A program made the position numbers and the translations under genes. DNA of 64,000 nt, from positions 124,001-188,000 of the forward strand of contig NZ_JACHWB010000005.1 in assembly GCF_014191055.1 (NCBI RefSeq). Direction: 5' to 3'. This DNA comes from Microvirga lupini. GTDB lineage: Bacteria; Pseudomonadota; Alphaproteobacteria; Rhizobiales; Beijerinckiaceae. Under the pieces are notes generated by a model, which was given only the letters and a program-made list of their open reading frames with translations, was not told where the DNA came from and did not search any database. This document shows positions 44,989 to 58,788 of the stretch, one piece after another. How positions within the stretch are numbered: the stretch's first letter is position 1; each line of letters opens with the position of its first letter.

Positions 44989-45008
44989 GGCAAGCTCCTC
45001 ACGAGAGA

Positions 45009-45032
45009 ACCGGCCCCGCATGCGGGGCCGGT
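45009..45032 (-). terminator. Perfect 24-bp palindrome after the capsid gene
   Basis: ACCGGCCCCGCA pairs with TGCGGGGCCGGT without a mismatch, 17 bases after the capsid stop. No T run follows, so it may be a processing or stability hairpin that sets high capsid expression relative to the portal. Confidence 0.6.
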
Positions 45033-45048
45033 CGTGATCATCGGACGC

Positions 45049-45930
45049 TTAGGGCGTTACGACGGGGTCACCCCAGGTGATGTTATCCATCCAGGCCACA
45101 GCGCTGGCGCGGCGGCGGGCCCAGTTCATGGTCCGCTCGGCACGGAAGGCCACGCTATTGGTCTGGAACATGGAGACTAGCTCGGCGTCGACCGGCGTAG
45201 AAGCGCCCGAGTCCTGGGTCGGATTGTCCGCCATCTCGAGCGAGGCTTCGGTCGACATGGCAATGTCGACGCCGCCCTCATCCGCCAAGTAGACATCCTC
45301 GGCATTGACCAGCGCGACATAGTCGCCGAGGTAGTTCGAGACGATGACCGGCAGTTCGAAGAAAGTACCACCCTGCATGGTGATGCCAGGGAATTCGCGC
45401 TGCCCGAGCGGGTTCAGCATCATCATGAGGCGCAATGCATAGGTCGCACCCATGATCCAGACGCCGGACTGAAGCGGGTTGTTCGCCGCAACGAAGGCGC
45501 CGATAAGCGCCTGAACGTCCTCACGGACGCCATCCGCACCGGTCGCATCGCTGTTGGTGACAGCCGTGACACCGTTCAGGATCGAAGCCGGCCGGACACC
45601 GCCGACCGCCGCTGAGGTCGGGTCGATGAACGAGATGTCCGAACGCTTGGCGATGGCCTTGGCCAGCGAGTTGCGCAGGAGCACGTCGGAGGACGGCGAG
45701 CTATCGCGGATGAGCTCCATGGTCTGCACTGCGATAGCCGCGATCTTCAGTGGCGTGATCTCGTTCCGGCCGACCGTGAACTTGGTCAGCGGCTTGCCCT
45801 TGCCCTCGCCAACCCACTGCGCCTCGGTCTCGGAGGTTTCAGTGATCAGGGGGACCCGAAAGGGAATTCGGGTCAGGTTCGGAATATTGCCGGTTCCGAA
45901 CCGCCCGAGGATCGTCATCGGCCGGAGGAA
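45049..45930 (-). pseudogene. Prophage major capsid protein, C-terminal part (interrupted by nested element)
   Basis: From the left repeat to the stop this frame encodes about 293 residues of an HK97-fold capsid: FLRPMTILGRFGTGNIPN at the cut, then AQWVGEGKGKPLT, a spine region, and a conserved end with LADEGGVDIAMSTEASLEM and MNWARRRASAVAWM. The N-terminal part lies at 55827-56920. Joining the two across one copy of the repeat gives one frame with no gap, so the split is by insertion and not by decay. In the present state no capsid is made from this gene. Confidence 0.9.
45920..45930. other. attL core of the nested element
   Basis: GGCCGGAGGAA here is repeated exactly at 55827-55837. It encodes the Phe-Leu-Arg-Pro codons of the capsid gene. 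The integrase stop lies five bases inside it. Outside the 11 bases the flanks differ, as expected for site-specific recombination. Confidence 0.85.
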
Positions 45931-45935
45931 TATTT

Positions 45936-47246
45936 TTAGCTTTGATATGAATGCCTTACAGAGATTTGTCGCGGCCTTGTCGCGTCCAGGCTCGCTGCAA
46001 CTGCCTCTGTTGTCGCAACCATGCGCGTATCGGTCGGGAAAAGATGACCGTAAATGTCCTTGGTCGTCTGTATCGAAGCATGCCCGATGAACCGCTTTAG
46101 GTTCATGTCGTCGAGCCCGGCTTCGATGAGCAGGCTTGCAGCCACATGGCGCAGGGCGTGAGGGGTGAACTTGTTCCGCTTGGCCTCGTGATCGTAGAGC
46201 CCGGCGGCATCCATCAGGCGCTTCCAGAACGTCGTCGCGCTGGCTGTTGCCGACATGGGCTTGCCGACCTTGGTTAGGACCACGAAGCCCCGGAGCTGAG
46301 TCGGATCGACGTTGACCACCTCGGTTTCCCACATGCGGGCGATGCGGCTAAAGATGGCCTTGGGGTGCGTTGAACCTCGGAACCGCTCTGGCTCGTTCGC
46401 CATCGTTCTGATGATCCAATATCGGGCGGCTTGGTAGAGCGCCCGGCGCACCGGCTCCGTGAGCGGCACGTCCCGGTAGCCTGCCTCAGTCTTAGGGCTC
46501 TTGAGCCCGTTCACCTTGGAGTGAGCGCGGCGGACATGGATCACGCCCCTTTCCCAGTCGATGTCCTCCCAGTGAAGCCCGTAGGTCTCTCCAGGCCGGA
46601 ATCCGCAGAATACGCCGCATGCGATGACCACAGAGCGGTTTACGAAGGTCAAGAGGTTCTCTCCCCTCTCAAGCGTGCCCGCAGCCTCCAAGAGCGCCCG
46701 AATGTCGTCCTTGGTCGGGATCGCCTTGCGCTTGGGCTTATGAGGTAGCTTACAGGGTTCGTCGCGCAGGACGTTCCGGCGCACCCACCGCTTAGACACT
46801 GCGAATGTGAACAGGACATGCAAGGAGCCGTAGATCCCGCTGATGGTCGAAGGCGATAGCTTTTCGCGCAGTTCCTCGACATAGGCTTGCACCTCTGCCG
46901 CCGTGATCGAAGAGACGCGCCGGGTTGCGAACTTGGGAAGGGTGTAATGCTCAAGCCGGTACTCGTAGCCCTTGACGCCGCCCATGGTCAGATCGCCTAG
47001 CTTCTGGCGCCGGTGGCAGTCCTTAATGAACTCATCGACTGCCTTTGCGAAAGTAACGCTCTCATTATAGGCAGTATGAACCCCTTGGGTGATCTCGCCC
47101 TCTACTTGAACCCGAAAAGCATCCGCGTCTTTTTTCTTCTCGAACGTCTTCATGCGGCGGGTACCGCCCTGGTCGGTATAGCGCACCACCCAGGCTGTTT
47201 TCTTCTCGCCCTTATAGGTCCACTCTCTCTTGCTTACGCTTGCCAC
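45936..47246 (-). CDS. int: Tyrosine integrase of the nested element
   Basis: The 436-residue recombinase has an arm-binding N-terminus (WVVRYTDQGGTRRMKTFEKK), a SAM-like core-binding domain (about 60-155), and a catalytic domain with Arg217 (CGFRPGE), the beta-hairpin Lys region, His363-x-x-Arg366 (HALRH), His389 (GHAS) and the nucleophile Tyr399 (DIYGHLF). All catalytic residues are present. It ends five bases from the left att core, as is common for elements that carry attP beside int. It would drive integration into, and excision from, the capsid gene. Confidence 0.93.
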   Translation of the reverse strand: MASVSKREWTYKGEKKTAWVVRYTDQGGTRRMKTFEKKKDADAFRVQVEGEITQGVHTAYNESVTFAKAVDEFIKDCHRRQKLGDLTMGGVKGYEYRLEHYTLPKFATRRVSSITAAEVQAYVEELREKLSPSTISGIYGSLHVLFTFAVSKRWVRRNVLRDEPCKLPHKPKRKAIPTKDDIRALLEAAGTLERGENLLTFVNRSVVIACGVFCGFRPGETYGLHWEDIDWERGVIHVRRAHSKVNGLKSPKTEAGYRDVPLTEPVRRALYQAARYWIIRTMANEPERFRGSTHPKAIFSRIARMWETEVVNVDPTQLRGFVVLTKVGKPMSATASATTFWKRLMDAAGLYDHEAKRNKFTPHALRHVAASLLIEAGLDDMNLKRFIGHASIQTTKDIYGHLFPTDTRMVATTEAVAASLDATRPRQISVRHSYQS

Positions 47247-47270
47247 GTTGCTCTCCTTTCAGGGGAAGAG

Positions 47271-47294
47271 GCCCGGCCACGGGTGCAGCCGGGC
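47271..47294 (-). terminator. Hairpin between the acidic-protein gene and int
   Basis: GCCCGGC (47271-47277) pairs with GCCGGGC (47288-47294). It sits in the 55-base gap ahead of int on the minus strand. No T run follows, so termination may be weak. Confidence 0.5.
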
Positions 47295-47301
47295 AGGTTG
47301 G

Positions 47302-47748
47302 TCAGTAGCTTTCGGGGATGGTGTGATAGGTGCGCTCGACCGTCCCGACGATGACGAAACGGGCCACGGTCGCGTCGATGCCGTATTGCTCATCTAAGCC
47401 GCCACGGTCGCCAATTCCGTTGTCGTCGGTGTTGCCCTCGAAGTCCTCGTCAGGCTCCCGCCCGTCGTGCTCCTCCTCGAGGTCCTGGTCGGTGCCGTGA
47501 GCATATGTACCGGTCCACCCAAGGGAGGGCTCTAGGTCGGCATCGCTCTCTGCCTCGTCGACATAGCCAGGCATTACCGTGCCGAATGATGGCTCTAGAT
47601 CCGGGTCGCCGTCGATGGCGTCAAGGATGCTGAAAAGCCGCTCAAGTTCGTTCTCTATGGATGTCCGAAGGGCGCGGAGATTGGCCCGCTCTAGCTCAAG
47701 GCCTAGAGACACTATTGGCCCGGTCTGGGCATTGAATTGTGATGTCAT
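47302..47748 (-). CDS. Highly acidic protein upstream of int
   Basis: The 148-residue product starts with a helical part (ALRTSIENELERLFSILDAI) and continues into a very acidic, Asp/Glu/Gly-rich stretch (about 48-120: DQDLEEEHDGREPDEDFEGN). The end turns basic/hydrophobic (ATVARFVIVGTVERTYHT). Strong negative charge in a small mobile-element protein fits a DNA mimic, for example an inhibitor of a DNA-binding host or phage protein. This is speculation; no family is recognised. Confidence 0.55.
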   Translation of the reverse strand: MTSQFNAQTGPIVSLGLELERANLRALRTSIENELERLFSILDAIDGDPDLEPSFGTVMPGYVDEAESDADLEPSLGWTGTYAHGTDQDLEEEHDGREPDEDFEGNTDDNGIGDRGGLDEQYGIDATVARFVIVGTVERTYHTIPESY

Positions 47749-48173
47749 GGGTACTCGCGGAATAGAACCGGCTTCTCAGGGCCGGGGAGCGAGGTTCCGT
47801 TCGGGAACGTTGCTCCATGCCAGCGGTCGTCACTGGCACCGGGAGTCTGAGAACATATCCGCGAGAATATGCGCCACGGCCTTCGCACAAAGGCTATTGT
47901 ATAACCGTGGCACTCCCGGCATAGTGAGCCGGTCGCGCCCACAGTTAAGGGGCACGTCAATTTCAGTAGGATCGGGCCGGCAAGCCAGATCGCTACCTAT
48001 CGCAGATGCAGCGCTAGACCCGGCAAGGTCCCGCTGCGGAAGTTCTCAGGCTCCAAGCTCCAATATGACACGCGAACCCACCGCCCGGCAAGGCGGGAGG
48101 GGTTCTCGCGCGCATAGCGCCTTGCTCGCTAATGTCCCGGTGTGGCACACAGGTTACGGGGGGATCAGTTAAA
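47749..48173. other. Gene-free divergent control region
   Basis: These 425 bases lie between the minus-strand int side and plus-strand cargo. No gene is seen. There is a dyad CATAT...ATATG (about 47853-47870) and AT-rich tracts before the membrane-protein gene. A promoter region for both directions is likely. Confidence 0.45.
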
Positions 48174-48947
48174 ATGAATGCACCTTTATGGGTTCGAACC
48201 CGCTTCACGGCACTTGTCCTAGGGGCGCTTCTGTTCATCAACCTTCTTCTCTTCGTCTCAAACGAGGCGACCGTTGCCAATACCCTAGCCCGCCTTCCGC
48301 AGCCTATCGCCACCCTGATCGCTGGGATTGTCGGCCTTGGAACTATCGCTTGGCAGACGCGCCGAGGCTTCCAAAATCTGATCGCCTCGCAAGAGCATCG
48401 CGCAGAACTAGACAGAGCGGCTAGGCTCCACCAGGCCGAATTAACGGACCTCCAGTCTGAGAAGCAAAGTGACCGGCAGAGAAGGACACTTGCAGCAGCT
48501 ATTCATGCAGAACTCATTGCGCTGCTACCCCAGGTGCACAACACTCAACAATATCTATTGTTACAACAACACATCTTTCTAGAGATGGCAAAGATTGACA
48601 AAGACAAGAAAACCGACTTCCGGCTGCCTCAGTTTCGAACTACTGTTTTCGAGAGTGCTCTCCCAAATATCGGAATGCTTGGGCCTTCGACTGCTGGTGA
48701 TGTTATCTCTGTCTATTCATTACTACGTTTGAATATGGACCCTCCCGTTATCAAGGATAGCCCGGTACAATTTCTTGCATCTCTCGTGGAAAGCTTGACA
48801 AAAACCTATTCAAACCTTGGGGGCGAGATCGTCCATGTCGGCTCACGGCTGACGCATGTCCAGTTTGGAACTGCCGACCCGGGAACGCTCTACGATTTTC
48901 GGAAGCAACGCGATGGTGCAGGCGAAGCTGAAGCCTCTGGCACCTAA
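48174..48947 (+). CDS. Membrane-anchored coiled-coil cargo protein
   Basis: The 257-residue protein starts MNAPLWVRTRFTALVLGALL, with two membrane segments at about residues 10-30 and 47-62 (LPQPIATLIAGIVGLGTIAW), then a charged coiled coil (about 70-115), then a helical C-terminal half. It is on the plus strand, opposite to the structural genes, and its second half is AT-rich. These features fit a lysogen-expressed gene; a role in phage exclusion or immunity is possible but not shown. Confidence 0.6.
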   Translation: MNAPLWVRTRFTALVLGALLFINLLLFVSNEATVANTLARLPQPIATLIAGIVGLGTIAWQTRRGFQNLIASQEHRAELDRAARLHQAELTDLQSEKQSDRQRRTLAAAIHAELIALLPQVHNTQQYLLLQQHIFLEMAKIDKDKKTDFRLPQFRTTVFESALPNIGMLGPSTAGDVISVYSLLRLNMDPPVIKDSPVQFLASLVESLTKTYSNLGGEIVHVGSRLTHVQFGTADPGTLYDFRKQRDGAGEAEASGT

Positions 48948-49025
48948 TAATCACCTTCTAAAGTCAGGCTTGTCAGTGGTTCCCACCACATGTTGAATGC
49001 CCTTTAACTAGCTGGGGAGCTATTC

Positions 49026-49409
49026 ATGAAACTCGTATCTATCGCTGCCATTGGGGCAGTCGCCTTGGGGCTTGCCGGTTGCCAGACGACAGCTGATCAG
49101 CAGCAGCCCAAGAAAGTCTTCGTCCGCGCTGATGGACAGTCTATTCGAGGCAATCCAAGGCTTGAGCAGCAGGCTGAACTCGATAAGACCATCTGCATTG
49201 GTGAGACACAGAAGGCCGCCGTTGGCATGTCCCCAATCTATTACCGTGGTGTTGTCGGGGCTATCCAAGCTGGCATGATCGAAAACCAAAGGCAGAGCGC
49301 CCTTTTAGATGTCGCTATCGGTTGCATGGCTTCAAAGGGCTATGTCGTCTCGACTGAAGAAGAGGCAGCAGCTCGGCAAGCCGCGCGGTCTCGGCCACGT
49401 CGTAGCTAG
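49026..49409 (+). CDS. Small lipoprotein
   Basis: The 127-residue product has a clear lipoprotein signal (MKLVSIAAIGAVALGLAGC, lipobox LAGC with Cys at residue 19) and a mature part with two further cysteines (KTICIGETQ, DVAIGCMASKGY). The C-terminus is Arg-rich. It would be lipidated in the outer or inner membrane. As cargo on a phage element, blocking superinfection at the cell surface is a reasonable guess. Confidence 0.7.
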   Translation: MKLVSIAAIGAVALGLAGCQTTADQQQPKKVFVRADGQSIRGNPRLEQQAELDKTICIGETQKAAVGMSPIYYRGVVGAIQAGMIENQRQSALLDVAIGCMASKGYVVSTEEEAAARQAARSRPRRS

Positions 49410-49460
49410 AACGGAAGGCCGGGCAGCCTTGCGAGCTGATCCCGGCCTCTACCTTCCGCC

Positions 49461-49643
49461 CTAAGCAGGCAGCCCCGCCGCCTGCTCCATCAGCTCGTCG
49501 AGTTGCTCGTCTGAGACATAGACAGCCTGGGTCAGCATTGGCACGAAGACGCCGTCCCCGAAAAGGCCCGGAATCGGGCGACTGGACAGTTGAGCGACGG
49601 TCTTGCTAAAACCGTGCCATGAAAATTCTAGGCGGACGCTACC
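49461..49643 (-). pseudogene. Gene remnant, C-terminal 60 codons
   Basis: An open minus-strand frame without start reads SWHGFSKTVAQLSSRPIPGL, then FGDGVFVPMLTQAVYVSDEQ and a stop after AAGLPA. Its last 22 residues resemble the remnant at 27487-27576. It is cut at its 5' end where the acetyltransferase gene (plus strand) begins. It looks like the tail of a former fibre-linked gene. Confidence 0.4.
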
Positions 49644-50203
49644 TCACCGAAGACGAACTCTTTGAAGCGGGTGTGCCGACTGTTGGGAAGGGCGTTCGCG
49701 TTCATTCAACTGCTGTACTTGTTGACCTCGAACGAATGTCTTTCGGCTCAAATGTCCGTATCGATCCGTACTGTGTCATCAGCGCAGCCGGTGGGTTCGT
49801 TCGGTTTGGCTCTTACATCCACATTGCCGCCCAAGCTGTCATGATGGGCGGTGAGGGAATCGAGATGCAGGACTTCTCCGGGATTTCCCAAAGTGTCTGC
49901 GTCTATTCAGTCAGCGACGATTATTCAGGCGAAACACTGACAAATCCCACTGTTCCAAGGCACCTACTCAAGGTCAAGCGTGGAACTGTAACCCTTGGTC
50001 GCCACGTCATAGTAGGCAGCCACTCTGTCGTTCTGCCGGGGGCAAATATTGCTGAAGGGTGTGCGGTTGGCGCCCTCTCGCTCGTAAACGAACCCCTTGC
50101 CCCCTGGGGAATTTACGCTGGCACGCCGGCACGCCGGTTGAAAGATCGCAGCCGCAACCTTCTCCACACCGAGAGGCAACTCTCAGCCGAGAGTGGGGCT
50201 TAG
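49619..50203 (+). CDS. Left-handed beta-helix acyltransferase
   Basis: The 194-residue protein has hexapeptide repeats in two blocks (VGKGVRVHSTAVLVDLERMS, FGSNVRIDPYCVIS and GTVTLGRHVIVGSHSVVLPG, ANIAEGCAVGALSLVNEPL), ending GIYAGTPARRLKDR. The Y-A-G-x-P-A-R motif is typical of galactoside- or maltose-type acetyltransferases. It would acetylate a sugar, perhaps on surface polysaccharide. It is convergent with the fibre-chaperone gene, overlapping by 21 bases. Confidence 0.78.
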   Translation: MKILGGRYLTEDELFEAGVPTVGKGVRVHSTAVLVDLERMSFGSNVRIDPYCVISAAGGFVRFGSYIHIAAQAVMMGGEGIEMQDFSGISQSVCVYSVSDDYSGETLTNPTVPRHLLKVKRGTVTLGRHVIVGSHSVVLPGANIAEGCAVGALSLVNEPLAPWGIYAGTPARRLKDRSRNLLHTERQLSAESGA

Positions 50204-50506
50204 TAGTTCTGCGGCACGTTCCGGACCATAAGTATCTTCTGCGGCTGCCATGAGGTCCGGCCAGAACTCATCATCCGACGATAGGAATTCTGCCGCGTCA
50301 AAGATCGCCTGCAGTCTTGGCGGAAAGCCTGCACGGATCTGAAGGTACGCCTCGTACTCGGCGTCCGTCATCTTGCGGAACATCGGGGCTTTGTAGGTGC
50401 GCGGAAGGCCCATTGGAGGTGGGGGCGCTGCCTGATCGGCCTCGTATTGTGCCAACTCTTTTGTCGTCAGAGGCACCAGTTCCCCGTCATCGTATTTCAT
50501 CATCAT
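50183..50506 (-). CDS. Tail fibre assembly chaperone-like protein of the element
   Basis: The 107-residue protein shares almost all of its last 70 residues with the protein at 28060-28368 (KAPMFRKMTDAEYEAYLQIR, then AGFPPRLQAIFDAAEFLSS), while the first 35 residues differ. Start overlaps the fibre stop. It should act on the fibre encoded by the adjacent gene and perhaps also on the prophage's fibre. Confidence 0.62.
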   Translation of the reverse strand: MMMKYDDGELVPLTTKELAQYEADQAAPPPPMGLPRTYKAPMFRKMTDAEYEAYLQIRAGFPPRLQAIFDAAEFLSSDDEFWPDLMAAAEDTYGPERAAELLSPTLG

Positions 50507-51267
50507 GGCACGCTCTCCAAGGTAAACTTGCCGGTGGCAATGTTCCCAGAACTCATAAGAAGGCGGATTTTATTTACCCGAGCGGCGTTCGTAAGACACT
50601 TCACGGACCCATTAAATATGGTCAGGTAATTCGTTGCATTGATGATCGCTTCGCTTTGCAGATTGACGGAGAACCGCTTTGAGGCAGACCCAGGATGAAT
50701 AGTTAGGCAACCAGAGGCACCATTGAGAGCATTGGAGTTATCTATTGGCGCCGTGATGAGAGGCATGGTTTCAGTCGAGGCAGATATTGTCGCGATGCCA
50801 GAGGCAGTCGTGTTGTAATTCATCTGCTTCAAATAATCGCCCGAAGTGGAGCGGTAGCTTGCTCCATCATTCTCAGAAACGCGCAAAGCAAGCTGCGCGT
50901 TGTTCACAGCACCTTGAACTTCCGAGAAGGTTAGCCGGTACGATCGAAACCCTGGGGACAGTGTAAAGTCTACAAAAGGAGCGGCGACTGTGACATCTGT
51001 TGTTTGGGGCCCGGCATAGCTGATTACACCTGTCGCGGTGTTGATCGTCATCAGCGTGCGCCAGGCGCTGCCGTCCCAATACTTGCGGGTGATCACGCCC
51101 GCGACCGACGTATCAGCCCAGGTAGTGCCTACCACCTTGTAGCTCGGCTCGGTCGAGCCTGAGTGCTCCGACAGTAGAGCATTGAAGTTGTCTCTCAGTC
51201 GTCCCGCGAAGGTTGATGGAGTCATCGGCCCTATAATCGGGATCTGCCAATTGGTGGCTTGGCTCAT
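50503..51267 (-). CDS. Tail fibre-like protein of the element
   Basis: The 254-residue product shares an attachment segment with the prophage fibre (FNALLSEHSGSTEPSYKVVG, then TTWADTSVAGVITRKYWDGS), but its C-terminal 160 residues are unrelated. The pattern suggests that the shared part docks onto the same tail tip and the distinct part binds another receptor. The element has no other tail gene. A good AAGGAACG site precedes the ATG. Confidence 0.7.
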   Translation of the reverse strand: MSQATNWQIPIIGPMTPSTFAGRLRDNFNALLSEHSGSTEPSYKVVGTTWADTSVAGVITRKYWDGSAWRTLMTINTATGVISYAGPQTTDVTVAAPFVDFTLSPGFRSYRLTFSEVQGAVNNAQLALRVSENDGASYRSTSGDYLKQMNYNTTASGIATISASTETMPLITAPIDNSNALNGASGCLTIHPGSASKRFSVNLQSEAIINATNYLTIFNGSVKCLTNAARVNKIRLLMSSGNIATGKFTLESVP

Positions 51268-51509
51268 TTGCTCGTTCCTTTCTTAGCAACGGTTAGCATT
51301 TGGGTGCGCACCTTGCTTTCTGCGCGCCTATTAAAAATCACTCTGAAAGCCTTGTCTTGATTAGGTTTCAGGGCCTTCGATTTGCCGGAAAGTGCGCACT
51401 CGCAAATCAAATCGGTAAGCAAAATTGTCTGCATGCGCACCCGTCCGGTAACGGCCCTCGGGTCTCCTCAAGTGTGAGGATACCCCCCCGGGTCTGCTTT
51501 CTTTCCGAT

Positions 51510-51533
51510 CCCGAAAAAAACCTTTTTTCGGGG
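51510..51533 (+). terminator. Strong hairpin in the 51268-51602 gap
   Basis: CCCGAAAAAA (51510-51519) pairs with TTTTTTCGGG (51523-51532) around a short loop. The arms supply A and T runs in both directions, so it may act as a bidirectional terminator. The rest of this 335-base gap shows no gene; it carries a C run (51483-51489) and AT-rich tracts. Confidence 0.7.
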
Positions 51534-51602
51534 CGTTTATGAAAGGAAATACCCCCGACCGGTGGAGGCCCCGTTCATGGGCTCGCCGAGGTCTCCCCCC
51601 GG

Positions 51603-51818
51603 TCACTGTAGGCTCTCTCCGCCGCGTCGGGCGGTGCCGGTCGCTTCGGCCTTCACCCTGTCGAACTGCTGTCGTTGGATAGCTATCTCGGCTCGGATCT
51701 CTTCATCGGTCGCGCCCTTGCTGGACAAGAGTCGGGCCGTATCCTGCAGCCTCTCCTCTGTGATCTCGTCAAAGCAGGCTTCTAGGTCGGCAAAAGACTT
51801 GATCTTAAACGTGGTCAT
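51603..51818 (-). CDS. Small protein downstream of the element's capsid
   Basis: The 71-residue product starts MTTFKIKSFADLEACFDEIT and is helical and charged, with a basic end. It overlaps the preceding gene by four bases in an ATGA, so the two are made together after the capsid. A small helical partner of the capsid (scaffold or size factor) is one possibility; no sequence match supports it. Confidence 0.5.
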   Translation of the reverse strand: MTTFKIKSFADLEACFDEITEERLQDTARLLSSKGATDEEIRAEIAIQRQQFDRVKAEATGTARRGGESLQ

Positions 51819-52039
51819 TCGCGGCCTTCCCGAATGGCTGTGAGGTGTTCTTCGATGGCAGTGAGGCGCTCGTCGGTCTTGCGGTGCTTTTCCCGCATCT
51901 CGTCGCGAACGGTCTTCACGCATGCGGCGAGCATTGCTCCCACCAGCGGCCCGAGCCCTTTGCCGCTGATCTTGCCAGCGTTCTCAAAGGCTCGGTCTAA
52001 TTCCTCTAGGATCTTTTCGTCCCAAGCATCCTCATCCAT
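51815..52039 (-). CDS. Small coiled-coil protein downstream of the element's capsid
   Basis: The 74-residue product starts MDEDAWDEKILEELDRAFEN after GAGGG and ends in a heptad-like helix (MREKHRKTDERLTAIEEHLT). It begins 11 bases after the capsid stop. The size, helix content and position would suit a scaffold or external capsid-size factor as in other satellites, but this is inference. Confidence 0.55.
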   Translation of the reverse strand: MDEDAWDEKILEELDRAFENAGKISGKGLGPLVGAMLAACVKTVRDEMREKHRKTDERLTAIEEHLTAIREGRE

Positions 52040-52049
52040 GGTGCGGCCC

Positions 52050-53099
52050 TCAGTAGGAAGTGCCGGAGACATAGGCCACGGCACCGGGGTTGCGCATCTT
52101 CCAACGGATCGTGCGGATGCCCCTGAAGCCGACGCTATTGGCCTGAAAAAGGCTGACCATCTGCACCGCGCCATCAACGGGATCGTCCCGCATCTGAAGT
52201 GCGGCTTCCTGAGCGATGTCTAGTTCCACGGCGCCATCGGCCAGCATCAGTTCCGCCGCATCGAGGAGCGTGATTTGATCGCCCGCATTGGCAGAGACCA
52301 GAACCGGGATTCCCCAGATGTCACCGCCCAGGACGTTGACGTTCGGGAACACGCTGGCGCCCTGGCTGTTTCTGAGCGCAGCCAAGGCAAGCGCGTTCTT
52401 CGGGCTCATGATGAAGTAGGGAGCAAGGAACTGTGCGCCGGCTGCGCTGAGAGCACCGGTAAGGGCGTACAGATCCGCCTCGGGATCGGTGGACGGGATC
52501 GCCGTCAGGCCGTTGGTGATCGAAGCCGGGCGAATACCGGTTTCCGTCACGGTCGGGTCAAGGAGCTGCTCGTCGGTGAATTGGGCAATCCCGCCAACGA
52601 GGTCCCGCATGACCACGGCCTCGGCTGCAGGGTCCGACGACCTCACCAACTCCTTGGTGAGCACGATGATTCCGGCCACCTTGGAATGCTCGAAGTCGTC
52701 GACGCTCATATCGAGCTTGCCGACCGGGATCGGCTTGAACTCGCCAACCCAGCCCGCCGTTGCGCCGGATGTCTGCTTGTTGAACTTCACCCGGAACGGG
52801 ACCGGGCGGAAACCGCGCATCCGGCCAAGGATCGTAAGCGGGCGGACCAGCTCAAGGAATTCAGTGGCAAAGCCCTGCACCGGGACGAGGGGATCACCCC
52901 AATTTCCCGTTGAACCAGCCGGCACCGCCGCCTTTTGTACCATGCTGATGTACTTCGAATTAGGCCACCGCTTCTCAAAGACTTCGGCGGTATCCATGCC
53001 CGCCTCGTAGCCGACGGCGCGGGCAATCGTGTATCTGACGAAGGCCTGAGCCTTAGCGTTCAGCTCGTATTGACTGGTAAGAGTGGCGAGTCGGTCCAA
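52050..53099 (-). CDS. Major capsid protein of the nested element (HK97 fold)
   Basis: About 349 residues align end to end with the mature part of the interrupted prophage capsid: FVRYTIARAVGYEAG, EFLELVRPLTILGRM, TAGWVGEFKPIPVGKLDM, DPTVTETGIRPASITNGL, ELDIAQEAALQMRDDP and the end VGFRGIRTIRWKMRN. It lacks the protease and delta (scaffold) regions. I start it at TTG 53099, which follows CCGGAG; TTG 53162 would add 21 residues. The region matching the att core reads GGGCGGACCAG, so the site is absent. It is the only head gene on the element. Confidence 0.87.
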   Translation of the reverse strand: MDRLATLTSQYELNAKAQAFVRYTIARAVGYEAGMDTAEVFEKRWPNSKYISMVQKAAVPAGSTGNWGDPLVPVQGFATEFLELVRPLTILGRMRGFRPVPFRVKFNKQTSGATAGWVGEFKPIPVGKLDMSVDDFEHSKVAGIIVLTKELVRSSDPAAEAVVMRDLVGGIAQFTDEQLLDPTVTETGIRPASITNGLTAIPSTDPEADLYALTGALSAAGAQFLAPYFIMSPKNALALAALRNSQGASVFPNVNVLGGDIWGIPVLVSANAGDQITLLDAAELMLADGAVELDIAQEAALQMRDDPVDGAVQMVSLFQANSVGFRGIRTIRWKMRNPGAVAYVSGTSY

Positions 53100-53185
53100 G
53101 GTTGTGCTCCGGTCATCTTGTGTTGTGATAGTAAAACTGCGGTGATACTGGCCGGGTCTCAATGGGCTTTGCGGGTTTGCGAGTT

Positions 53186-53551
53186 TCAGCCGCCCAAACT
53201 CGCAGGCTCTACTTTCCAGATGATGCCGTCTCTATCGCTGCCGACCTGCAGGACACGCCAGCCGGCAAGCTCCTGTTTCTCCATGCGTCGCAACAGCTTT
53301 CCGACTTTGCGCGGGCTCGTGCCGCCCGCTGCATGAAGGGCCGTGAGCAGCTTTTCAGGCGGTGCGGCCTCGGCAAAGTCTGCGAGTTCCGAGGCCGTAA
53401 ACACGCGAGCCCCTACCGCTGAGGCGATGGCATCGAGCAAGGCAGCGAGGCTATCGGCCTGGACAGGTGCGCCGGCTTGCCGGGCAATATCAGCCCGAAG
53501 GCCTCGCACCTCGGATATGAGCACACGCAAGAGCGCGTCAGTGTCGGACAT
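53186..53551 (-). CDS. Winged-helix-like small protein upstream of the element's capsid
   Basis: The 121-residue product starts MSDTDALLRVLISEVRGLRA. The N-terminal helix is followed by an Ala-rich helical part and a C-terminal region (SPRKVGKLLRRMEKQELAGW, then VLQVGSDRDGIIWKVEPAS) that looks like a helix-turn-helix with wing. It lies between the cos-like site and the capsid gene, exactly where the prophage has TerS. It could bind the site or regulate the capsid. Start is uncertain; no good ribosome site is seen. Confidence 0.55.
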   Translation of the reverse strand: MSDTDALLRVLISEVRGLRADIARQAGAPVQADSLAALLDAIASAVGARVFTASELADFAEAAPPEKLLTALHAAGGTSPRKVGKLLRRMEKQELAGWRVLQVGSDRDGIIWKVEPASLGG

Positions 53552-53702
53552 GCACACTTCATCCCCGAAGGGGATGGCCGAAACCCCCTTCCTAAACTTC
53601 ATCGCAGTGCGAACGGTGGACCCCGGTCGGTTTGAGGGTCCTTGCTGGATGGGTCGAGAATGCCCCCCGGTCCTGCTCAGGTCAGGCGTTGCAGAATGGC
53701 CG

Positions 53703-53759
53703 TCTCAGAACATTAATCTGCAAAAACGAGAAGTTTTGCCCCCTGCCGGTGCAGGCCCC
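53703..53759 (+). other. Putative cos/packaging site of the nested element
   Basis: These 57 bases match 59169-59225 at 55 positions, in the same orientation. They contain two neighbouring dyads: GCAAAA...TTTTGC and CCTGC-CGGT-GCAGG. They lie in a 384-base gene-free stretch (53552-53935) ahead of the element's capsid module. The matching copy in the prophage is between HNH and TerS. No other feature in the stretch is recognised. Confidence 0.72.
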
Positions 53760-53935
53760 TTCGGCTCTCTGGGCGAGCCCCTTCCCCCTCTGCACCCTCA
53801 ACATTTGAATTGTGGCTGCGTGCGAAGTGGATAGGACGCCGGTCCCTAGATCTTGGCCATACGTAGGCCGGAGCCCCCCTTGGCAGCGATCACGACATAA
53901 GGCATTTCAACTCTATTGAATGCCTGGGGGGCAGA

Positions 53936-54550
53936 ATGATGAATAAGACGAGAATTGGCACTTGGATTGCGGCAATCGTCCTTGGCGTGGTCGGCTCCGG
54001 CGTATGGGAGAACGTAGTACGTCCACTTCTGTCGTGGGCCTCGGAAAAGCTCCTTTACATCGGAACGCTAGGAGCGACGTCTTACCTCAACAGCATCTAT
54101 GTTGACATCGCGCGCGGGCAATATGAGAGAGCAGCGCTGTCTAACTATCTTCTTACAATGGGCTTTGCATCGGTAAGCATCGGCGGTCTCGTGACCTTGT
54201 ATTTTCTAATCAGGTTCACACGGAAGCGCGAGATAAACCTAGAACAATCCGGCCCGTTATATCGGAGACTTGAACGTTTCAACTCCTTTTTCTCGATGCC
54301 GATATTCCTGTTCCTCCTCACCTTCCTATTCGTAAACTTTGCTCGCGACACGTATGCTGTGAGAGCCGCCAACCACCTAGTACAGGTGCAAACGATAGTG
54401 GCGCCCTATGTGGATGAGCGCACCCGTCTAGAACTCGCCTCTCGATCGGCGCAAATTCAGAACCGCGACGACTATGTCAAGCTTCTCAATGAGATCGATA
54501 CTATTGCGACAAAGAACAAGCTATACACCCCGAAATTCAAGGTGTTCTAG
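53936..54550 (+). CDS. Membrane cargo protein of the element
   Basis: The 204-residue protein has three membrane segments: IGTWIAAIVLGVVGSGVW near the N-terminus, TMGFASVSIGGLVTLYFLI around residue 80, and FSMPIFLFLLTFLFVNF around 125. The C-terminal 70 residues are helical and charged. The DNA is AT-rich compared with its neighbours. It is on the plus strand, between the packaging-like site and the palindromes. Membrane proteins in this setting often exclude other phages; no family match is claimed. Confidence 0.6.
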   Translation: MMNKTRIGTWIAAIVLGVVGSGVWENVVRPLLSWASEKLLYIGTLGATSYLNSIYVDIARGQYERAALSNYLLTMGFASVSIGGLVTLYFLIRFTRKREINLEQSGPLYRRLERFNSFFSMPIFLFLLTFLFVNFARDTYAVRAANHLVQVQTIVAPYVDERTRLELASRSAQIQNRDDYVKLLNEIDTIATKNKLYTPKFKVF

Positions 54551-54601
54551 TCGCGAAGGCCCTTGCCTTTCATTCTGATACTTTGCTGAAACTAAAAAGC
54601 C

Positions 54602-54705
54602 GGGGGCGTTCTTGCCCCTTATCCGGGGGCGCTATCGCCCCTTATGCCGGCCATGTGCCGGGGGCGTTCTCGCCCCTACAGTCCTGGGGGCGTTTTCGCC
54701 CCTAC
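54602..54705. repeat. Four tandem palindromic units, possible replication origin
   Basis: Units start at 54602, 54625, 54660 and 54686, each reading GGGGGCGNTNTYGCCCCTWM, with GGGGCG/CGCCCC-type arms. They are spaced 23, 35 and 26 bases and overlap the 3' end of the winged-helix gene, so that gene's C-terminus is encoded by the repeats. Iteron-like sites next to the gene for their binding protein are a common origin design. Confidence 0.7.
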
Positions 54706-55150
54706 TTTCTAGATCTCGGGAGGGTGCAGCTTTAAGAGCCGCCACCACGGCAACCGCATGCTCGTCTGTGCTGATGCGCTGCCACTCGTCTGTCGGGGCC
54801 TGACTGCGGCCTGTCCCATGCACATAGGTGAGCCGATAGAGAGAGGGCGTCCTGAACTCGGCAATGGATCGGCGGCCCTGCCTCGTCACCTCCAGAAAGC
54901 CCAGGCCAGCACATTGACGGATGGCGAGGGCGATAGACTTCCTTCGGATGCCTGCCTTCTCAAAGTCGGCATAGGTGCAGGGCAGCCTCCCATTTTCGGC
55001 GCTGCCATGCCTCATGTGTTCAAGCTCCAGCCGGTCGAGGATGCGCCGGGCATTATCCGGCAGATGCCTCCAGGCTGGGGATTCCCGCATGTCGCGGCGA
55101 TGGGCAATAAACTGCTGCCCAATGCTGTTGCGTCTCTTCTTTACGCTCAT
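54632..55150 (-). CDS. Helix-turn-helix/winged-helix protein, possible replication initiator
   Basis: The 172-residue protein starts MSVKKRRNSIGQQFIAHRRD, then shows a winged-helix-like region (ARRILDRLELEHMRHG, YADFEKAGIRRKSIALAIRQ, GLGFLEVTRQGRRSIAEF) of the kind seen in RepA-like and phage replication-associated proteins. The basic, Pro/Arg-rich end comes from the palindromic repeats. It is third in the AlpA-PC4-HTH operon. A role in starting replication at the neighbouring repeats is a reasonable inference. Confidence 0.62.
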   Translation of the reverse strand: MSVKKRRNSIGQQFIAHRRDMRESPAWRHLPDNARRILDRLELEHMRHGSAENGRLPCTYADFEKAGIRRKSIALAIRQCAGLGFLEVTRQGRRSIAEFRTPSLYRLTYVHGTGRSQAPTDEWQRISTDEHAVAVVAALKAAPSRDLESRGENAPRTVGARTPPAHGRHKGR

Positions 55151-55173
55151 TCCGCGCCTCCGGTGCCGATGGC

Positions 55174-55425
55174 TTACCGGGGGGCGGGAGCGACAAGGCC
55201 GAGGCTCTCAGCTTGGTCTCTCGCCTCGCACATGGCGCGGGCAATCTCAGGCAGGAGGTCAACGCGAAAAGCGAGCCCCGACTTAGAGGGACGCATCGCC
55301 CCATCGGCAGCCTTAAACCATACCCTGACATGAGCGACCGTGTGGCCTTGGAACTCCCCTAGGCTGACCCGGATCTCTTCACGGCTGTTCTTGCGGATGG
55401 TGGAAACGAGAGTGTCGTCGGTCAT
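55174..55425 (-). CDS. PC4/p15-like single-stranded DNA-binding or transcription cofactor
   Basis: The 83-residue product starts MTDDTLVSTIRKNSREEIRV and continues LGEFQGHTVAHVRVWFKAAD and PSKSGLAFRVDLLPEIARAM. The beta-sheet plus helix with REEIRV...V-R-V-W...GLAF pattern matches bacterial PC4-like (p15) proteins. These bind single-stranded DNA and can act in transcription or replication. It overlaps the AlpA-like gene in an ATGA. A phage or satellite setting suggests a part in replication or late gene control. Confidence 0.68.
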   Translation of the reverse strand: MTDDTLVSTIRKNSREEIRVSLGEFQGHTVAHVRVWFKAADGAMRPSKSGLAFRVDLLPEIARAMCEARDQAESLGLVAPAPR

Positions 55426-55616
55426 GCCGCCACCTTCCCCGCCCGCGTGGCAATCCAAGCCCGTACGTCCGATTTCAGAGCGCAGACGGTGCGGCCCATT
55501 TTGAAGGTCGGCAGCCCGTGCTTTTCCTTCAGATGATAGACCTGTCTCGGCTTCCATTTGAAGGCCTCTGCGATGGCCGGTACGCCATACAAAAGATCCT
55601 CATTCTCAGTCGTCAT
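55422..55616 (-). CDS. AlpA-like putative excisionase/regulator
   Basis: The 64-residue protein starts MTTENEDLLYGVPAIAEAFK and holds a MerR-type helix-turn-helix: YGVPAIAEAFKWKPRQVYHL, then the basic turn GLPTFKMGRTVCALKSDVRA. Such small proteins act as recombination directionality factors and regulators in satellites and prophages. ATG 55616 follows AAGGAAGGA. It is the first gene of the minus-strand operon next to the right end, so it could control excision from the capsid gene. Confidence 0.72.
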   Translation of the reverse strand: MTTENEDLLYGVPAIAEAFKWKPRQVYHLKEKHGLPTFKMGRTVCALKSDVRAWIATRAGKVAA

Positions 55617-55648
55617 TTTCGGTCCTTCCTTGTCGCGCCTCACATCCA

Positions 55649-55670
55649 ACTCTTGCACCACTCTTGCACC
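55649..55670. repeat. Two tandem 11-bp repeats near attR
   Basis: ACTCTTGCACC occurs twice without gap (55649-55659, 55660-55670), about 160 bases from the right att core and 33 bases upstream of the AlpA-like start. They could be sites for integrase arm binding or for the AlpA-like protein acting on its own promoter. Confidence 0.55.
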
Positions 55671-55750
55671 ACGGAGACGCCGGGAGGCTGCGGCAGTCAG
55701 CGGTAAGCTATTGATTTCATTGATACGGGTGTAAGCACGCCCGCGACATG

Positions 55751-55773
55751 AAAAAAGCCGCCCGGAGGCGGCT
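55751..55773 (-). terminator. Rho-independent terminator inside the right end
   Basis: On the minus strand AGCCGCC-TCCG-GGCGGCT is followed by TTTTTT. It lies between the stop of the interrupted capsid frame (55799) and the element's first operon. Helper late transcription would therefore stop here and not enter the element. Confidence 0.8.
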
Positions 55774-55798
55774 AAGTTGTTGTTCTGTTGAGACTAAT

Positions 55799-56920
55799 TT
55801 ACGCCGCTTGGCGCATGTCTGTTCTTGGCCGGAGGAACTCCACAAAGTCGGCGAAGCCGCCCTCGTTGCCGATCAGGGCATCCGTGTTGCTGGTTGTCAT
55901 CGCAGATACCGCAGCCTTGACGATGTCGACAAGGTCTGGATCGGTCTTGCCATACATGCCTTCCGCGATGGCCGCCACGGGCTGATGCGTCTTGGTCGAG
56001 AGAGCCAAGCACTTTGCGTAGCGAGCGAAGCGAATCCCCTTCTCGGGGGCCGACTTCGGCAGGGCGACGCCAGAGCGGACGGCCGCACCTTCGGCACCCG
56101 TCTTGATCTGGTCGTGCACGACGGGCTTTGCGGAGAGAGCCTGCGCCTTCTCCAAAGCGCGGAGGCGCTTCAGGTCGCCGTCGATGGCCTCAACCTCGCC
56201 TTCCAGCGTGTCGAACTCTTCCTGCTCGGCCTGGTCGGTTGAACGGCCTTCGTCGATGGACTTCTGCATGACGGCTGCCATGCGAGCGGACTTGGCATTT
56301 CGCGAGGCCTCAAGCGCCTCGATCTGTTCTGCGATGGTCTTCATCTTAGTGCCCTCCTTCGGGCGCAAGTTCACGGATTTGATGGCTTTTCCCGAAGCGC
56401 CGGGGCGGACAGGCCGATCATCTGCCTTGGGCTCTTTGCCGGTCGCGGCGAGCAAGGGGGCATCAATCGACTTGATAGTGGAAATCACCGCGTCGGCATT
56501 GGCCGGCACAGAGACAAGAGAAAGCTCAAGAACCTCGGTGGCGATGAAGCGGATGCCGCCTTCGTCCATCCACGAGTATTCGAGAGCGCGGAAGCCAATG
56601 GAGACGCCCTTGACGAGGCCGGCCTTCACTTCGCCCCAAGCCGTTTCGACGCGGTCGCGCAGAGGTCCGGGCTCATCAATGATCGGGAGCTTGGCTTCGA
56701 ACTTGATGCCGTCTTTGGTAGGTTTATCGAAGGTAACAGTGCCGACAGGCTTGCTGTGGTCGTGTTGATGCAGCAGTGGCATGGGGTTCTTGAACTGGAC
56801 ACCCAAGGGTTCCACGATGTCCCCTACCCGGTCAGGGTTAGGTGTTGTGGCCACGCCGCGGATAATACGCTGGTCCTCCTCGACCGCTTTCACGGCCAGG
56901 ATCGAATACATGCGGTTCAT
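55799..56920 (-). CDS. Prophage protease-capsid fusion, N-terminal part (interrupted)
   Basis: The 373-residue frame starts MNRMYSILAVKAVEEDQRII, a prohead-protease domain (about 1-160, with LHQHDHSKPVGTV and the VKGVSIGFRA block). From about residue 190 a coiled-coil delta-type scaffold region follows (MKTIAEQIEALEASRNAKSA), then the first 80 residues of capsid up to FADFVEFLRP. After the att core the frame reads RTDMRQAA and stops inside the element. The protease and scaffold parts are thus still intact. An internal ATG at 56344 with a strong GGAGG site could make the scaffold-capsid part alone. Confidence 0.88.
   Translation of the reverse strand: MNRMYSILAVKAVEEDQRIIRGVATTPNPDRVGDIVEPLGVQFKNPMPLLHQHDHSKPVGTVTFDKPTKDGIKFEAKLPIIDEPGPLRDRVETAWGEVKAGLVKGVSIGFRALEYSWMDEGGIRFIATEVLELSLVSVPANADAVISTIKSIDAPLLAATGKEPKADDRPVRPGASGKAIKSVNLRPKEGTKMKTIAEQIEALEASRNAKSARMAAVMQKSIDEGRSTDQAEQEEFDTLEGEVEAIDGDLKRLRALEKAQALSAKPVVHDQIKTGAEGAAVRSGVALPKSAPEKGIRFARYAKCLALSTKTHQPVAAIAEGMYGKTDPDLVDIVKAAVSAMTTSNTDALIGNEGGFADFVEFLRPRTDMRQAA
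55827..55837. other. attR core of the nested element
   Basis: GGCCGGAGGAA matches the left copy at 45920-45930. On the right side it continues into CTCCACAAAGTCGGCG, which encodes ADFVEF of the capsid on the minus strand. On the left it continues into the element. Confidence 0.85.
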
Positions 56921-56934
56921 ATCAGGGGTCCTTG

Positions 56935-58788
56935 TCAGCCCAGCACGAACATCTGGAACTCTTTGGGCTTGGCGCCCTCGTAGGAATTCGCGGCACCAAT
57001 CGCCATGCAGAGAGCCACAGCCGCGTCGATCTTGTTGACCGCTCGCTCTTTTGCGAGCCAGTAGTTGCCCCAACGGTCGTCGTCCGTGACCGCGCTCATC
57101 ATGGCCGAGATGAGTACCGGGTTCTTTTTCAGGCGGATGCGCCCTTCAAGGATCGCATCTTCCAGTTCACGAACCGACCCAGGCATCCAAAGCCCTTCAG
57201 GGTCGCGCCCCGCGGCCTTCGCTGCCTCCGTCATGGCCTCGTTCGGCCTGCCCTTCTTCGTGCCGCCCTGCGGGTGCTCGACGAACTCGACACTGATACC
57301 CAGCGCCGCGCATTCCGGCTCAAAGCCACGGCGGAAGGCGTAGCGGTCATAGGCCACGCACTCGACCTTGAAGTCATGGGCGTATTCGGCCAAGGCCTGT
57401 GCAACGTGATCGTAGCGAATGCTCTCGCCTTTCGGAGCGTGGATATGTTCGGCATCAGCCCATTGCCGATACGGCGCCTTGTCCCTTAAAGACCGGGCGT
57501 CCAAGGTGTCGCCAGGGGTCCAAGCTTCGATCCAGGCGTCATAGGTCGGCTTGCGGACCGTCTGCGTTTGCCCGTTGCGCTCGGCCGTGACCTCGATCTC
57601 GCCAGTCTTCACGACGACCGCCAGAGCGGTGATGTCCCGGTTCTGAGACAGGTCGCAGCCGATCCAGACCGGCTTTCCGTGATGCTCCTCAGGCTCGAAA
57701 TCGGCAATGGCCGGCTCAAGAGCCGCCCGGGTCATCCAGGCCGTGTCGGCATCCGTCCACTGACAGAAGTGCAGTCTCAGAATGCCATTGAGCTTTGAGG
57801 GCATCGCCTTCGCCTGAGCAACGACGCCTGCCAGATACTCCTCTGTGATCGTAACCCCGAGAAGCGGATTCGCCTTGATCCAGCAGGAAGGGTCATTCAG
57901 CGGATCATCGCCCGGATCAAGGGCGCACACATATGAAAACGTGTTGTCGTCCAGAACCTCGCCTAGATAATGGGCATCGTCGTCCTTGGCATCGATATTG
58001 CCGGCCGCGACCCTCACAGCATGTTCGTGCTCAGCCCAGCAGATCGAATTGCGGTCCGACCCGCTGTTGGTGATCATCAGCAGGAGTGGCTGCCGGCGAA
58101 ACTTGAAGCCGCGCTCGAGGATCTCGATGATGCCACCGTCCGCGTGCTCGTGGACCTCGTCCACAAGCGCGAAATGCGGGCGCGGCCCCGAACCTGTCTT
58201 CTTGGTCTCCCTCGAGACCGGCCGGAAGAACGATCCCTTGGCGAGGTACGCCAGATTGTACTCCTTGCCAGGGCCTCCGCTGCGCTTCAGGCGCTTGTCG
58301 AGGTCCGGCGATTTGTCCACCATCTTCACGGCATCGCGAAAAAGGATGCCTGCTTGGTCCTTCGTGGCGCCGGCGGAGTAGATTTCCGCTCCTGCCTCAC
58401 CATCCGCTGTCAGACCGTAGAGCCCAATCCCGCCCGCAAGAGGCGATTTCCCGTTGCCCTTGCCCTGCTCAATATAAGCCCGCCGAAACCGGCGTCGGCC
58501 ATCCAGCTTCTTCCAGCCAAAAAGCGAACCGATGATGAAATCCTGCGCAGGTTGGGACTTGAACGCCCTACCCTCGAATTGTCCCTCGCTCAGCCTCAGC
58601 TTCTCTTCGAAGAACCGGAGCGCCTTGGCTGCGCTCGCTGGGTCGAAAACAACGTCCTTCCGCCGCAGATCGTCCAAATGCCGACGACAGGCGTTCCGAA
58701 CGTGGGGGCCGGCGACGATCTCGCCCCTAACAACAGCCTCGGCATAAAGGGTCGCGCGGTCAGTCGTCGAAGAACTCGTCCTTGTCAT
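56935..58788 (-). CDS. terL: Terminase large subunit (HK97/Terminase_1 type)
   Basis: The 617-residue protein has the ATPase P-loop region AYIEQGKGNGKSPLAGG (about 104-120), the Walker B HFALVDEVHEH (about 205-215), and the nuclease part starting VWIGCDLSQNRDITALAVV (Asp near residue 366), with further acidic residues (VECVAYDRYAF). It drives DNA into heads and cuts at the packaging site. Stop lies 14 bases before the protease start. It is the only large terminase in the window, so the nested element must borrow it if packaged. Confidence 0.93.
   Translation of the reverse strand: MTRTSSSTTDRATLYAEAVVRGEIVAGPHVRNACRRHLDDLRRKDVVFDPASAAKALRFFEEKLRLSEGQFEGRAFKSQPAQDFIIGSLFGWKKLDGRRRFRRAYIEQGKGNGKSPLAGGIGLYGLTADGEAGAEIYSAGATKDQAGILFRDAVKMVDKSPDLDKRLKRSGGPGKEYNLAYLAKGSFFRPVSRETKKTGSGPRPHFALVDEVHEHADGGIIEILERGFKFRRQPLLLMITNSGSDRNSICWAEHEHAVRVAAGNIDAKDDDAHYLGEVLDDNTFSYVCALDPGDDPLNDPSCWIKANPLLGVTITEEYLAGVVAQAKAMPSKLNGILRLHFCQWTDADTAWMTRAALEPAIADFEPEEHHGKPVWIGCDLSQNRDITALAVVVKTGEIEVTAERNGQTQTVRKPTYDAWIEAWTPGDTLDARSLRDKAPYRQWADAEHIHAPKGESIRYDHVAQALAEYAHDFKVECVAYDRYAFRRGFEPECAALGISVEFVEHPQGGTKKGRPNEAMTEAAKAAGRDPEGLWMPGSVRELEDAILEGRIRLKKNPVLISAMMSAVTDDDRWGNYWLAKERAVNKIDAAVALCMAIGAANSYEGAKPKEFQMFVLG

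What the first reader, a model, noticed from the sequence alone, without database searches (positions are those of the whole stretch)
45920..55837. A 9.9-kb satellite-like element sits inside the helper prophage's protease-capsid gene
The C-terminal capsid half ends (minus strand) at FLRPMTILGR at 45930, and the N-terminal half ends at FADFVEFLRP at 55827. GGCCGGAGGAA is present at both junctions. Joining the flanks across one copy gives GACTTTGTGGAGTTC-CTCCGGCCGATG with the frame kept, and a total of 1965 bases, exactly 655 codons. The element has an intact integrase next to one end and an AlpA-like gene near the other. Integration of a satellite in the major capsid gene of the phage that could package it would silence the helper and make helper capsid synthesis depend on excision. 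I know of no described satellite with this target.
Basis: partly seen in the sequence, partly recalled or inferred. Interest (0 to 1): 0.95.

Follow-up and report, generated by a model that had tools for sequence, protein, structure and literature searches.

The report
Satellite embedded in helper's capsid gene
A small parasite of a bacterial virus sits inside that virus's own coat-protein gene and carries a coat gene of its own and what looks like a copy of the virus's packaging signal, much like a trick described in gut bacteria in 2023 but built from different parts.

Summary
A 9,907-bp element with 11-bp repeats splits a 654-codon protease-capsid gene. Relatives show exactly this join: 16 of 18 and 77 of 80 IMG/VR loci are uninterrupted (12 contigs are in both sets). 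Three further elements sit at the same codon of other phages, and a fifth relative is a 10.7-kb contig that closes on itself. All five carry a capsid gene of their own. A cos-like sequence matches the resident helper clearly in three composites (70-119 bits; mismatched pairs 23-44), only weakly in the fourth (40 bits).

Best read as a helper-embedded phage satellite. This element works like one but is not a member: integrase, excisionase-like gene, replication module, gene order and att motif differ. I call it a new variant, probably convergent. Excision, packaging and silencing of the helper are inferred, not shown.

The parts
45920..45930 (-). att core, integrase side (TTCCTCCGGCC), joined to the 3' part of the helper capsid gene
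55827..55837 (-). att core, excisionase side, joined to the 5' part of the helper capsid gene
55799..56920 (-). helper protease-capsid gene, 5' part: protease, linker (scaffold-like by recall) and start of the capsid domain; ends 8 codons inside the element
45049..45930 (-). helper protease-capsid gene, 3' part (293 aa, rest of the capsid domain)
45936..47246 (-). tyrosine integrase, 436 aa; one of five in a capsid-site clade
55422..55661 (-).
   Evidence: PHROG 18541 and 66; weak NCBIfam matches below cut-off; no Pfam match
55174..55557 (-). PC4-like regulator (true start probably inside this ORF)
   Evidence: PF02229, PHROG 4053
54632..55150 (-). replication-initiator-like protein, 172 aa, 92% identical in L025
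   Evidence: no family match of its own; the gene in the same place in L054 matches DnaD-like and initiator PHROGs; model of low confidence
54597..54705 (.). four iterons, overlapping the 3' end of the initiator-like gene; likely origin
   Evidence: same number and near-identical spacing in L025 and L127
53703..53759 (-). cos-like site, 55 of 57 nt identical to the helper's HNH-terS gap (59169-59225)
59169..59225 (-). helper cos-like site between the HNH gene (59254-59598) and terS (58760-59155)
53186..53602 (-). unknown protein conserved in L025 (66%)
52050..53162 (-). the element's own major capsid protein, 370 aa, without protease or linker part
   Evidence: PF05065 1.6e-17; PHROG 617 positions 294-626 only; HK97 heads rank first for a low-confidence model
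51603..52177 (-). two overlapping small ORFs downstream of the capsid gene, conserved in L025 and in a remnant in L017; no family match
50503..51267 (-). fibre-like protein; N-terminus 65% identical over 88 aa to the protein next to the helper's J gene. 'Fibre' rests on that position; neither protein matches a fibre family
50183..50506 (-). ORF following the fibre-like gene, like the one in the same place in the helper (79% DNA identity over 204 nt; 65% protein identity)
47302..50203 (.). cargo: hexapeptide acyltransferase (49619-50203 +), 127-aa ORF (49026-49409 +), 271-aa ORF (48132-48947 +), 148-aa ORF before the integrase (47302-47748 -)
   Evidence: no PADLOC match
53936..54550 (+). 204-aa ORF, unknown
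14003..64000 (.). helper prophage as far as it lies in the window: left att in tRNA-Gln (13982-14055); right att and helper integrase lie beyond the window

Best explanation
A helper-embedded phage satellite. Its integrase recombines an 11-bp core with the conserved FLRP stretch of the capsid domain in a family of prophages that make a fused protease-capsid protein. While integrated it lies co-oriented inside the helper's late gene, so late read-through would also transcribe its capsid and fibre-like genes. On induction the integrase and the excisionase-like protein would cut it out, rejoin the helper gene and free a circle that replicates from its own initiator and iterons and is packaged by the helper's terminase at the element's cos-like site, into particles built from helper portal, protease and tail and possibly its own coat protein and fibre. 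Shown by sequence: the insertion, its precision, its recurrence, the capsid genes, the cos-like matches, the iterons, a relative that closes into a circle. Inferred: transcription, excision, replication, packaging, effect on the helper.
For: Same-codon insertion in four composites (window, L025, L072, G561). 16 of 18 and 77 of 80 IMG/VR relatives uninterrupted. PF05065 capsid protein in 5 of 5 elements. Cos-like sequence shared with the resident helper: 95, 70 and 119 bits in three composites against 23-44 bits for the six mismatched pairs among them, lying between HNH and terS or terL. Four iterons with conserved spacing. L054, 10,756 bp, 56-nt exact terminal repeat, integrase gene running across its ends. 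No portal or large terminase among the 14 of 15 listed window-element ORFs scanned with PHROGs, nor in the fifteenth. Published precedent 11capE, where excision after induction was measured (PMC10111431).
Against: No reads, induction or particle data here. The L054 repeat could be an assembly overlap or a concatemer. In the fourth composite (L072/G562) the best match in the helper's HNH-terL interval is weak (75% over 59 nt, 40 bits), no better than mismatched pairs, though it lies just after the HNH gene on both sides. The L025 element also matches helpers of two other prophages, L021 and L022, at 55 and 58 bits, keeps a 27-nt window-type half-site (41 bits), and the window element matches L018 at 37 bits, so the fit is not exclusive. 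The cos role rests on position and similarity. PMC10111431 says PICI capsid genes are not needed for transfer and reports that no particles of its own composite were found. Absence of terminase or portal in the other four elements was tested only by tBLASTn with the window's proteins; their HNH proteins also match the HNH part of a small-terminase family (L054, L072).
Confidence: 0.82

Rival explanations
1. Capsid-switch module: the element is less a transferring satellite than a cassette that, while integrated, makes the composite phage use the element's coat protein and fibre together with the helper's truncated protease-linker product.
For: Insertion leaves the protease and linker part of the helper gene whole (373-aa product); the element's coat proteins lack that part (PHROG 617 positions 294-626, 319-626 and 312-626 of 626 in window, L054 and G561); the fibre-like protein has the N-terminus of the helper's.
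Against: Own initiator, iterons and cos-like site are not needed by a cassette; insertions are rare (1 of 80); a relative closes into a circle; the composite is 9.9 kb longer than the helper.
Confidence: 0.1
2. Remnant of a second prophage that integrated in the capsid gene and lost its packaging and tail genes.
For: Carries phage late genes and an integrase.
Against: Five elements of one integrase clade are all compact (9.6-15.8 kb) and none gave a portal or terminase match by tBLASTn with the window's proteins; cos-like match to the resident helper in three; the initiator-like gene is 92% identical between window and L025.
Confidence: 0.04
3. A true member of the published HE-PICI/gram-negative PICI group that spread to these bacteria.
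For: Same embedding, co-orientation, own capsid gene, shared cos-like sequence (PMC10111431).
Against: No PF13356 in the five integrases scanned, though L025 has a weak match to another arm domain (PF14657, 0.0076); 11capE and P4 stand apart in the tree; no Pfam AlpA in window, L025 or L072; no primase found; integrase at the other end; no doubled TGTATTGC motif.
Confidence: 0.04

Closest known systems
HE-PICI 11capE and relatives (Tommasini, Mageeney and Williams 2023, PMC10111431)
   Different: There: lambda-type capsid gene, arm-type (PF13356) integrase directly after the 5' gene part, PF05930 AlpA, primase, Enterobacteriaceae. Here: HK97-type protease-capsid fusion, integrase without PF13356 lying just before the 3' gene part, HTH/excisionase-like protein, initiator-like gene with four iterons, other bacteria
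Capsid-forming PICIs (cf-PICI; recalled; a cf-PICI capsid, 9gyi, is among the fold matches)
   Same: Own HK97-fold coat protein
   Different: No portal or large terminase found in the window's element; cf-PICIs are known (recalled) for a full set of head genes
P4-type satellites
   Same: Small genome, own replication start, excisionase-like gene, needs a helper
   Different: P4 integrase has PF13356; P4 has no coat gene in its annotation, the element does

Membership tests
HE-PICI / gram-negative PICI | Integrated in a late gene of a helper prophage, co-oriented with it | tested here: met
HE-PICI / gram-negative PICI | Short att identity block, target gene left disrupted | tested here: met
   11 bp in window and L025, 17 bp in G561, about 8 bp in L072 read by eye
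HE-PICI / gram-negative PICI | Integrase of the HE-PICI clade | tested here: not met
   11capE and P4 apart from the 64 others (SH-aLRT 99, quick tree, long branches); PF13356 in both of them and in none of five of ours
HE-PICI / gram-negative PICI | AlpA (PF05930) | tested here: not met
   11capE yes; window no match, L025 and L072 only HTH_17 below cut-off
HE-PICI / gram-negative PICI | Primase-based replication module | tested here: not met
   no primase match in the 15 listed window-element ORFs, each scanned with at least one library; initiator-like gene plus iterons instead
HE-PICI / gram-negative PICI | Order: 5' late-gene part, int, alpA, ..., late zone | tested here: not met
   11capE annotation against window, L025, G561, L072
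HE-PICI / gram-negative PICI | Doubled TGTATTGC motif on both sides of attP | tested here: not met
   exact 8-mer: 0 of 4 integrated elements within 400 bp; one single copy in L054
HE-PICI / gram-negative PICI | Packaging-site sequence shared with helper | tested here: met
   clear in window, L025, G561; weak in L072
HE-PICI / gram-negative PICI | Excision and replication after induction | not testable with these tools
   measured for 11capE in the paper
Phage satellite (general) | Lacks its own full set of particle and packaging genes | tested here: met
   no portal or large terminase among the window element's listed ORFs
Phage satellite (general) | Moves in helper-made particles | not testable with these tools
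   needs induction and particle DNA
Capsid-forming PICI | Full own head and packaging set (definition recalled) | tested here: not met
   coat gene only, no portal or large terminase

The most novel reading that the evidence does not exclude
The insertion codon is not just a parking place: by cutting the helper's fused protease-capsid gene near the start of the coat domain, the satellite keeps the helper's protease and scaffold-like part as a separate protein and supplies a coat protein that lacks that part, so the embedded state itself makes hybrid shells for the satellite before excision. This would have evolved independently of HE-PICIs, in an integrase clade that also enters terminase genes of other phages.
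Probability: 0.25. Interest if true: 0.8.

Novelty: new variant of a known kind. Interest (0 to 1): 0.6.

Why it matters
It shows helper-embedding outside the Enterobacteriaceae in which it was described, with other building parts, so the strategy probably arose at least twice. Composites whose cos-like sequence fits their own helper, next to one that fits poorly, give a natural test of how satellites adapt to helpers. Related integrases in front of cut terminase genes suggest that phage late genes are a more general niche for such parasites.

Tried and rejected
Searches of the window's genus and order for the integrase gave nothing close: 1 of 397 genomes at E 1e-60, its own; 4 of 249 at 1e-35, its own included. 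The cos-like sequence matched in 5 of 299 genomes, only its own strongly; the weak G122 hit falls in the HNH-terS gap of a related phage.

Dropped: that satellites shorten the tail with a small tape measure (in G559 the helper's protein has 670 aa, the satellite's 675). Trimmed: that the whole related integrase clade sits in cut late genes. I read 20 of 88 loci and scanned 10. L026, L056 and L058 start at PHROG 9 position 227-228, where the intact terminases of the window and G561 start at 169 and 181. L128, L057 and L066 start mid-profile in PHROG 15, but no intact control of that family was run. L091 (195) is hardly shorter than intact; L060 and L068 look whole; L113 is unclear. L075 rests on tBLASTn and L063 on a 34-aa match. 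In L055, L059, L061, L062, L078, L092, L107 and L110 I recognised no cut late gene; L059's terminase is whole. The 5' part was seen only for L026.

The automated core search also gave many 10-14-bp chance repeats, set aside, and missed L072 and G561 (short core; partner outside the locus). Structure models were poor: initiator-like protein 58.7 mean pLDDT (not searched), coat protein 53.9.

Papers: PMC10111431, outline and main text parts 1-6 of 8, supplements not seen; PMC11389934, one passage, a reference-list entry; all others search listings only. That no such element is described outside Enterobacterales rests on these searches of an open-licence library and on that paper.

Full report
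What is there. The window holds a helper prophage in tRNA-Gln: a 54-nt stretch at 94% identity links window about 14003-14056 with a point beyond the window, next to a phage integrase gene. Its late genes (terS, terL, protease-capsid, portal) are on the minus strand. The protease-capsid gene is cut in two by a 9,907-bp element with 11-bp core repeats at 45920-45930 and 55827-55837. The two parts add up to 654 residues with the frame kept.

Is it more than chance. In 18 IMG/VR loci found with the 3' part, the 5' part abuts in 16; the other two are a record 100% identical to the window and one more insertion, G561. Four loci chosen from whole genomes (L018, L020, L021, L022) are uninterrupted too. 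Twelve contigs occur in both sets. Close relatives read FADFVEFLRPMTI(L/V)GRFG across the site.

The same insertion elsewhere. Integrase searches found L025 (IMGVR_UViG_3300018877_000056, 89% identity), L027/G561 (3300042922_001062, 68%), L072/G562 (2843075475_000002, 69%) and L054 (3300004213_000426, 73% over its larger piece). L025, G561 and L072 sit at the same codon of phages whose capsid parts are 57-88% identical to the helper's. Core repeats are TTCCTCCGGCC, TTCCTGCGGCC and TTCCTCCGCCCGATGAC; the variants differ at third codon positions, and each is the same at both ends of its element; in L072 only about 8 bp agree. L054 is a 10,756-bp contig with a 56-nt exact terminal repeat, the integrase gene running across its ends and one core: a circle, or a concatemer.

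Gene content. The element has an HK97-type capsid protein (PF05065, 1.6e-17), 35% identical to the helper's over 296 residues. It matches only the coat part of PHROG 617 (294-626 of 626), without protease or linker. The other four elements have a PF05065 protein too (L025 6.7e-15, L054 4.9e-13, G561 9.6e-8, L072 1.2e-7). L072 also has a protease-like ORF. A low-confidence model (mean pLDDT 53.9) ranks HK97 heads first. There is a fibre-like gene whose N-terminus is 65% identical to the protein next to the helper's J gene, and the ORF after it; neither matches a fibre family, so the name rests on position. Further: an excisionase-like HTH protein, a PC4-like regulator, a 172-aa initiator-like gene, and cargo. 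L025 has instead a neck-like gene and a tape measure protein of the same length class as its helper's (675 and 670 aa). G561 has a fibre-family gene and two candidate defence genes.

Replication and packaging. Four iterons overlap the end of the initiator-like gene, spaced 23, 35, 26 in plus-strand order in the window and 26, 35, 23 in L025; an element in a Devosia MAG (L127) has 26, 34, 23. A 57-nt stretch of the element is 96% identical to the gap between the helper's HNH gene and terS. In L025 and G561 the elements also share a stretch with the HNH-terL interval of their own helper. Three elements against three helpers give 95, 70 and 119 bits for the resident pairs and 23-44 bits for the six others. 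The fit is not exclusive: the L025 element scores 55 and 58 bits with two other prophages (L021, L022) and keeps a 27-nt window-type half next to its own helper-type half (41 bits), as if the site had been refitted; the window element scores 37 bits with L018. In the fourth composite (L072/G562) the match is weak, 75% over 59 nt and 40 bits, though just after the HNH gene on both sides. Packaging function is inferred.

How it probably works. Integrated, it interrupts the helper's capsid gene and lies co-oriented in the late operon. On induction it would excise, rejoin the gene, replicate from its own origin and be packaged by the helper's terminase, perhaps in shells with its own coat protein and fibre. 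Only the sequence anatomy is shown.

What is known. The 2023 paper on helper-embedded PICIs (PMC10111431; outline and parts 1-6 of 8) describes 11capE in the capsid gene of a lambda-like prophage in E. coli, with its own capsid gene and a 258-bp stretch shared with the helper at the cos place; 201 elements in that site and 290 in other late genes; and, by qPCR and sequencing, excision of the composite, its replication, then excision of the satellite. The authors found no particles. They examined the top five integrase hits in each of seven databases and found phage surroundings only among Enterobacterales.

Same or different. I fetched 11capE. There the order is capsid 5' part, int, AlpA, primase, capsid gene, capsid 3' part; here it is 5' part, excisionase-like gene, regulator, initiator-like gene, cos-like site, capsid gene, cargo, int, 3' part. 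11capE and P4 integrases have PF13356; the five of ours scanned do not (L025 has a weak PF14657 match instead). 11capE has PF05930; window, L025 and L072 do not. In a quick tree of 66 integrases (64 of 88 screened loci, kept at 115 bits or more or with a noted target, plus 11capE and P4; L054 is a partial row) the five form a clade (SH-aLRT 99) and 11capE with P4 stand apart (99), on long branches, so their exact place is unsure. The doubled HE-PICI motif is absent near att in the four integrated elements; L054 has one single copy. So it works like an HE-PICI but misses five features of the group. Independent origin is the likeliest reading.

A wider pattern, less sure. Several related integrases are followed in frame by terminase genes that start mid-profile: L026, L056 and L058 at the same place (PHROG 9 position 227-228; intact genes of the window and G561 start at 169 and 181), and L128, L057 and L066 in another family without an intact control. 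The 5' part was seen only in L026. L060 and L068, next to portal and protease genes, look whole, and in eight of the 20 loci read I recognised no cut late gene. This resembles the late-gene tropism of HE-PICI integrases but is a lead.

Host. That the window is from an alphaproteobacterium of the order Hyphomicrobiales is my judgement from gene likeness; no call names it.

Verdict. Real, well explained, a new variant of a known kind. Interest 0.6: the phenomenon is published, but a second, differently built lineage with five members, three with a clear cos-like match to their own helper, is more than another example.

Noticed in passing
L026 near 1.2 and 11.2 kb; L056 near 11.2 kb; L058 near 10.4 kb: Related integrases followed in frame by terminase genes cut at the same place, near the ATP-binding motif (motif name recalled); in L026 the 5' terminase part lies about 10 kb upstream.
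   Followed up: partly
L127 (JAQSXP010000014.1, Devosia MAG): Element with the same initiator type and four iterons, a PF05065 coat gene and a tape-measure-like gene, whose excisionase side abuts a LysR-like ORF (recalled likeness) instead of a late gene; its other border was not resolved.
   Followed up: partly
L017 9106-9950 (G016): Remnant with the end of the satellite-type coat gene and the two small downstream ORFs, about 4 kb from a tRNA-Gln(ctg) gene, the tRNA in which the window's helper sits.
   Followed up: partly
L027 6244-8603: Cargo of the G561 element: two ORFs match PADLOC candidate families PDC-S48 (also DEDDh exonuclease) and PDC-S32.
   Followed up: no
window 62723-63343: NusG-family ORF (PF02357, 2.4e-8) in the helper; could be an antiterminator (inference).
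   Followed up: partly
window 22390-23151 and 59706-60851; by recalled likeness also 12983-13585, 17599-19314 and L141 14666-15457: Proteins with RTX calcium-binding repeats (the first two by PF00353; the second also with a CAP domain) at and inside the prophage ends.
   Followed up: partly
window 56935-58788 and L034 6225-7928: Helper terminases only 25% identical although the capsid parts next to them are 57-75% identical: mosaic late modules.
   Followed up: no
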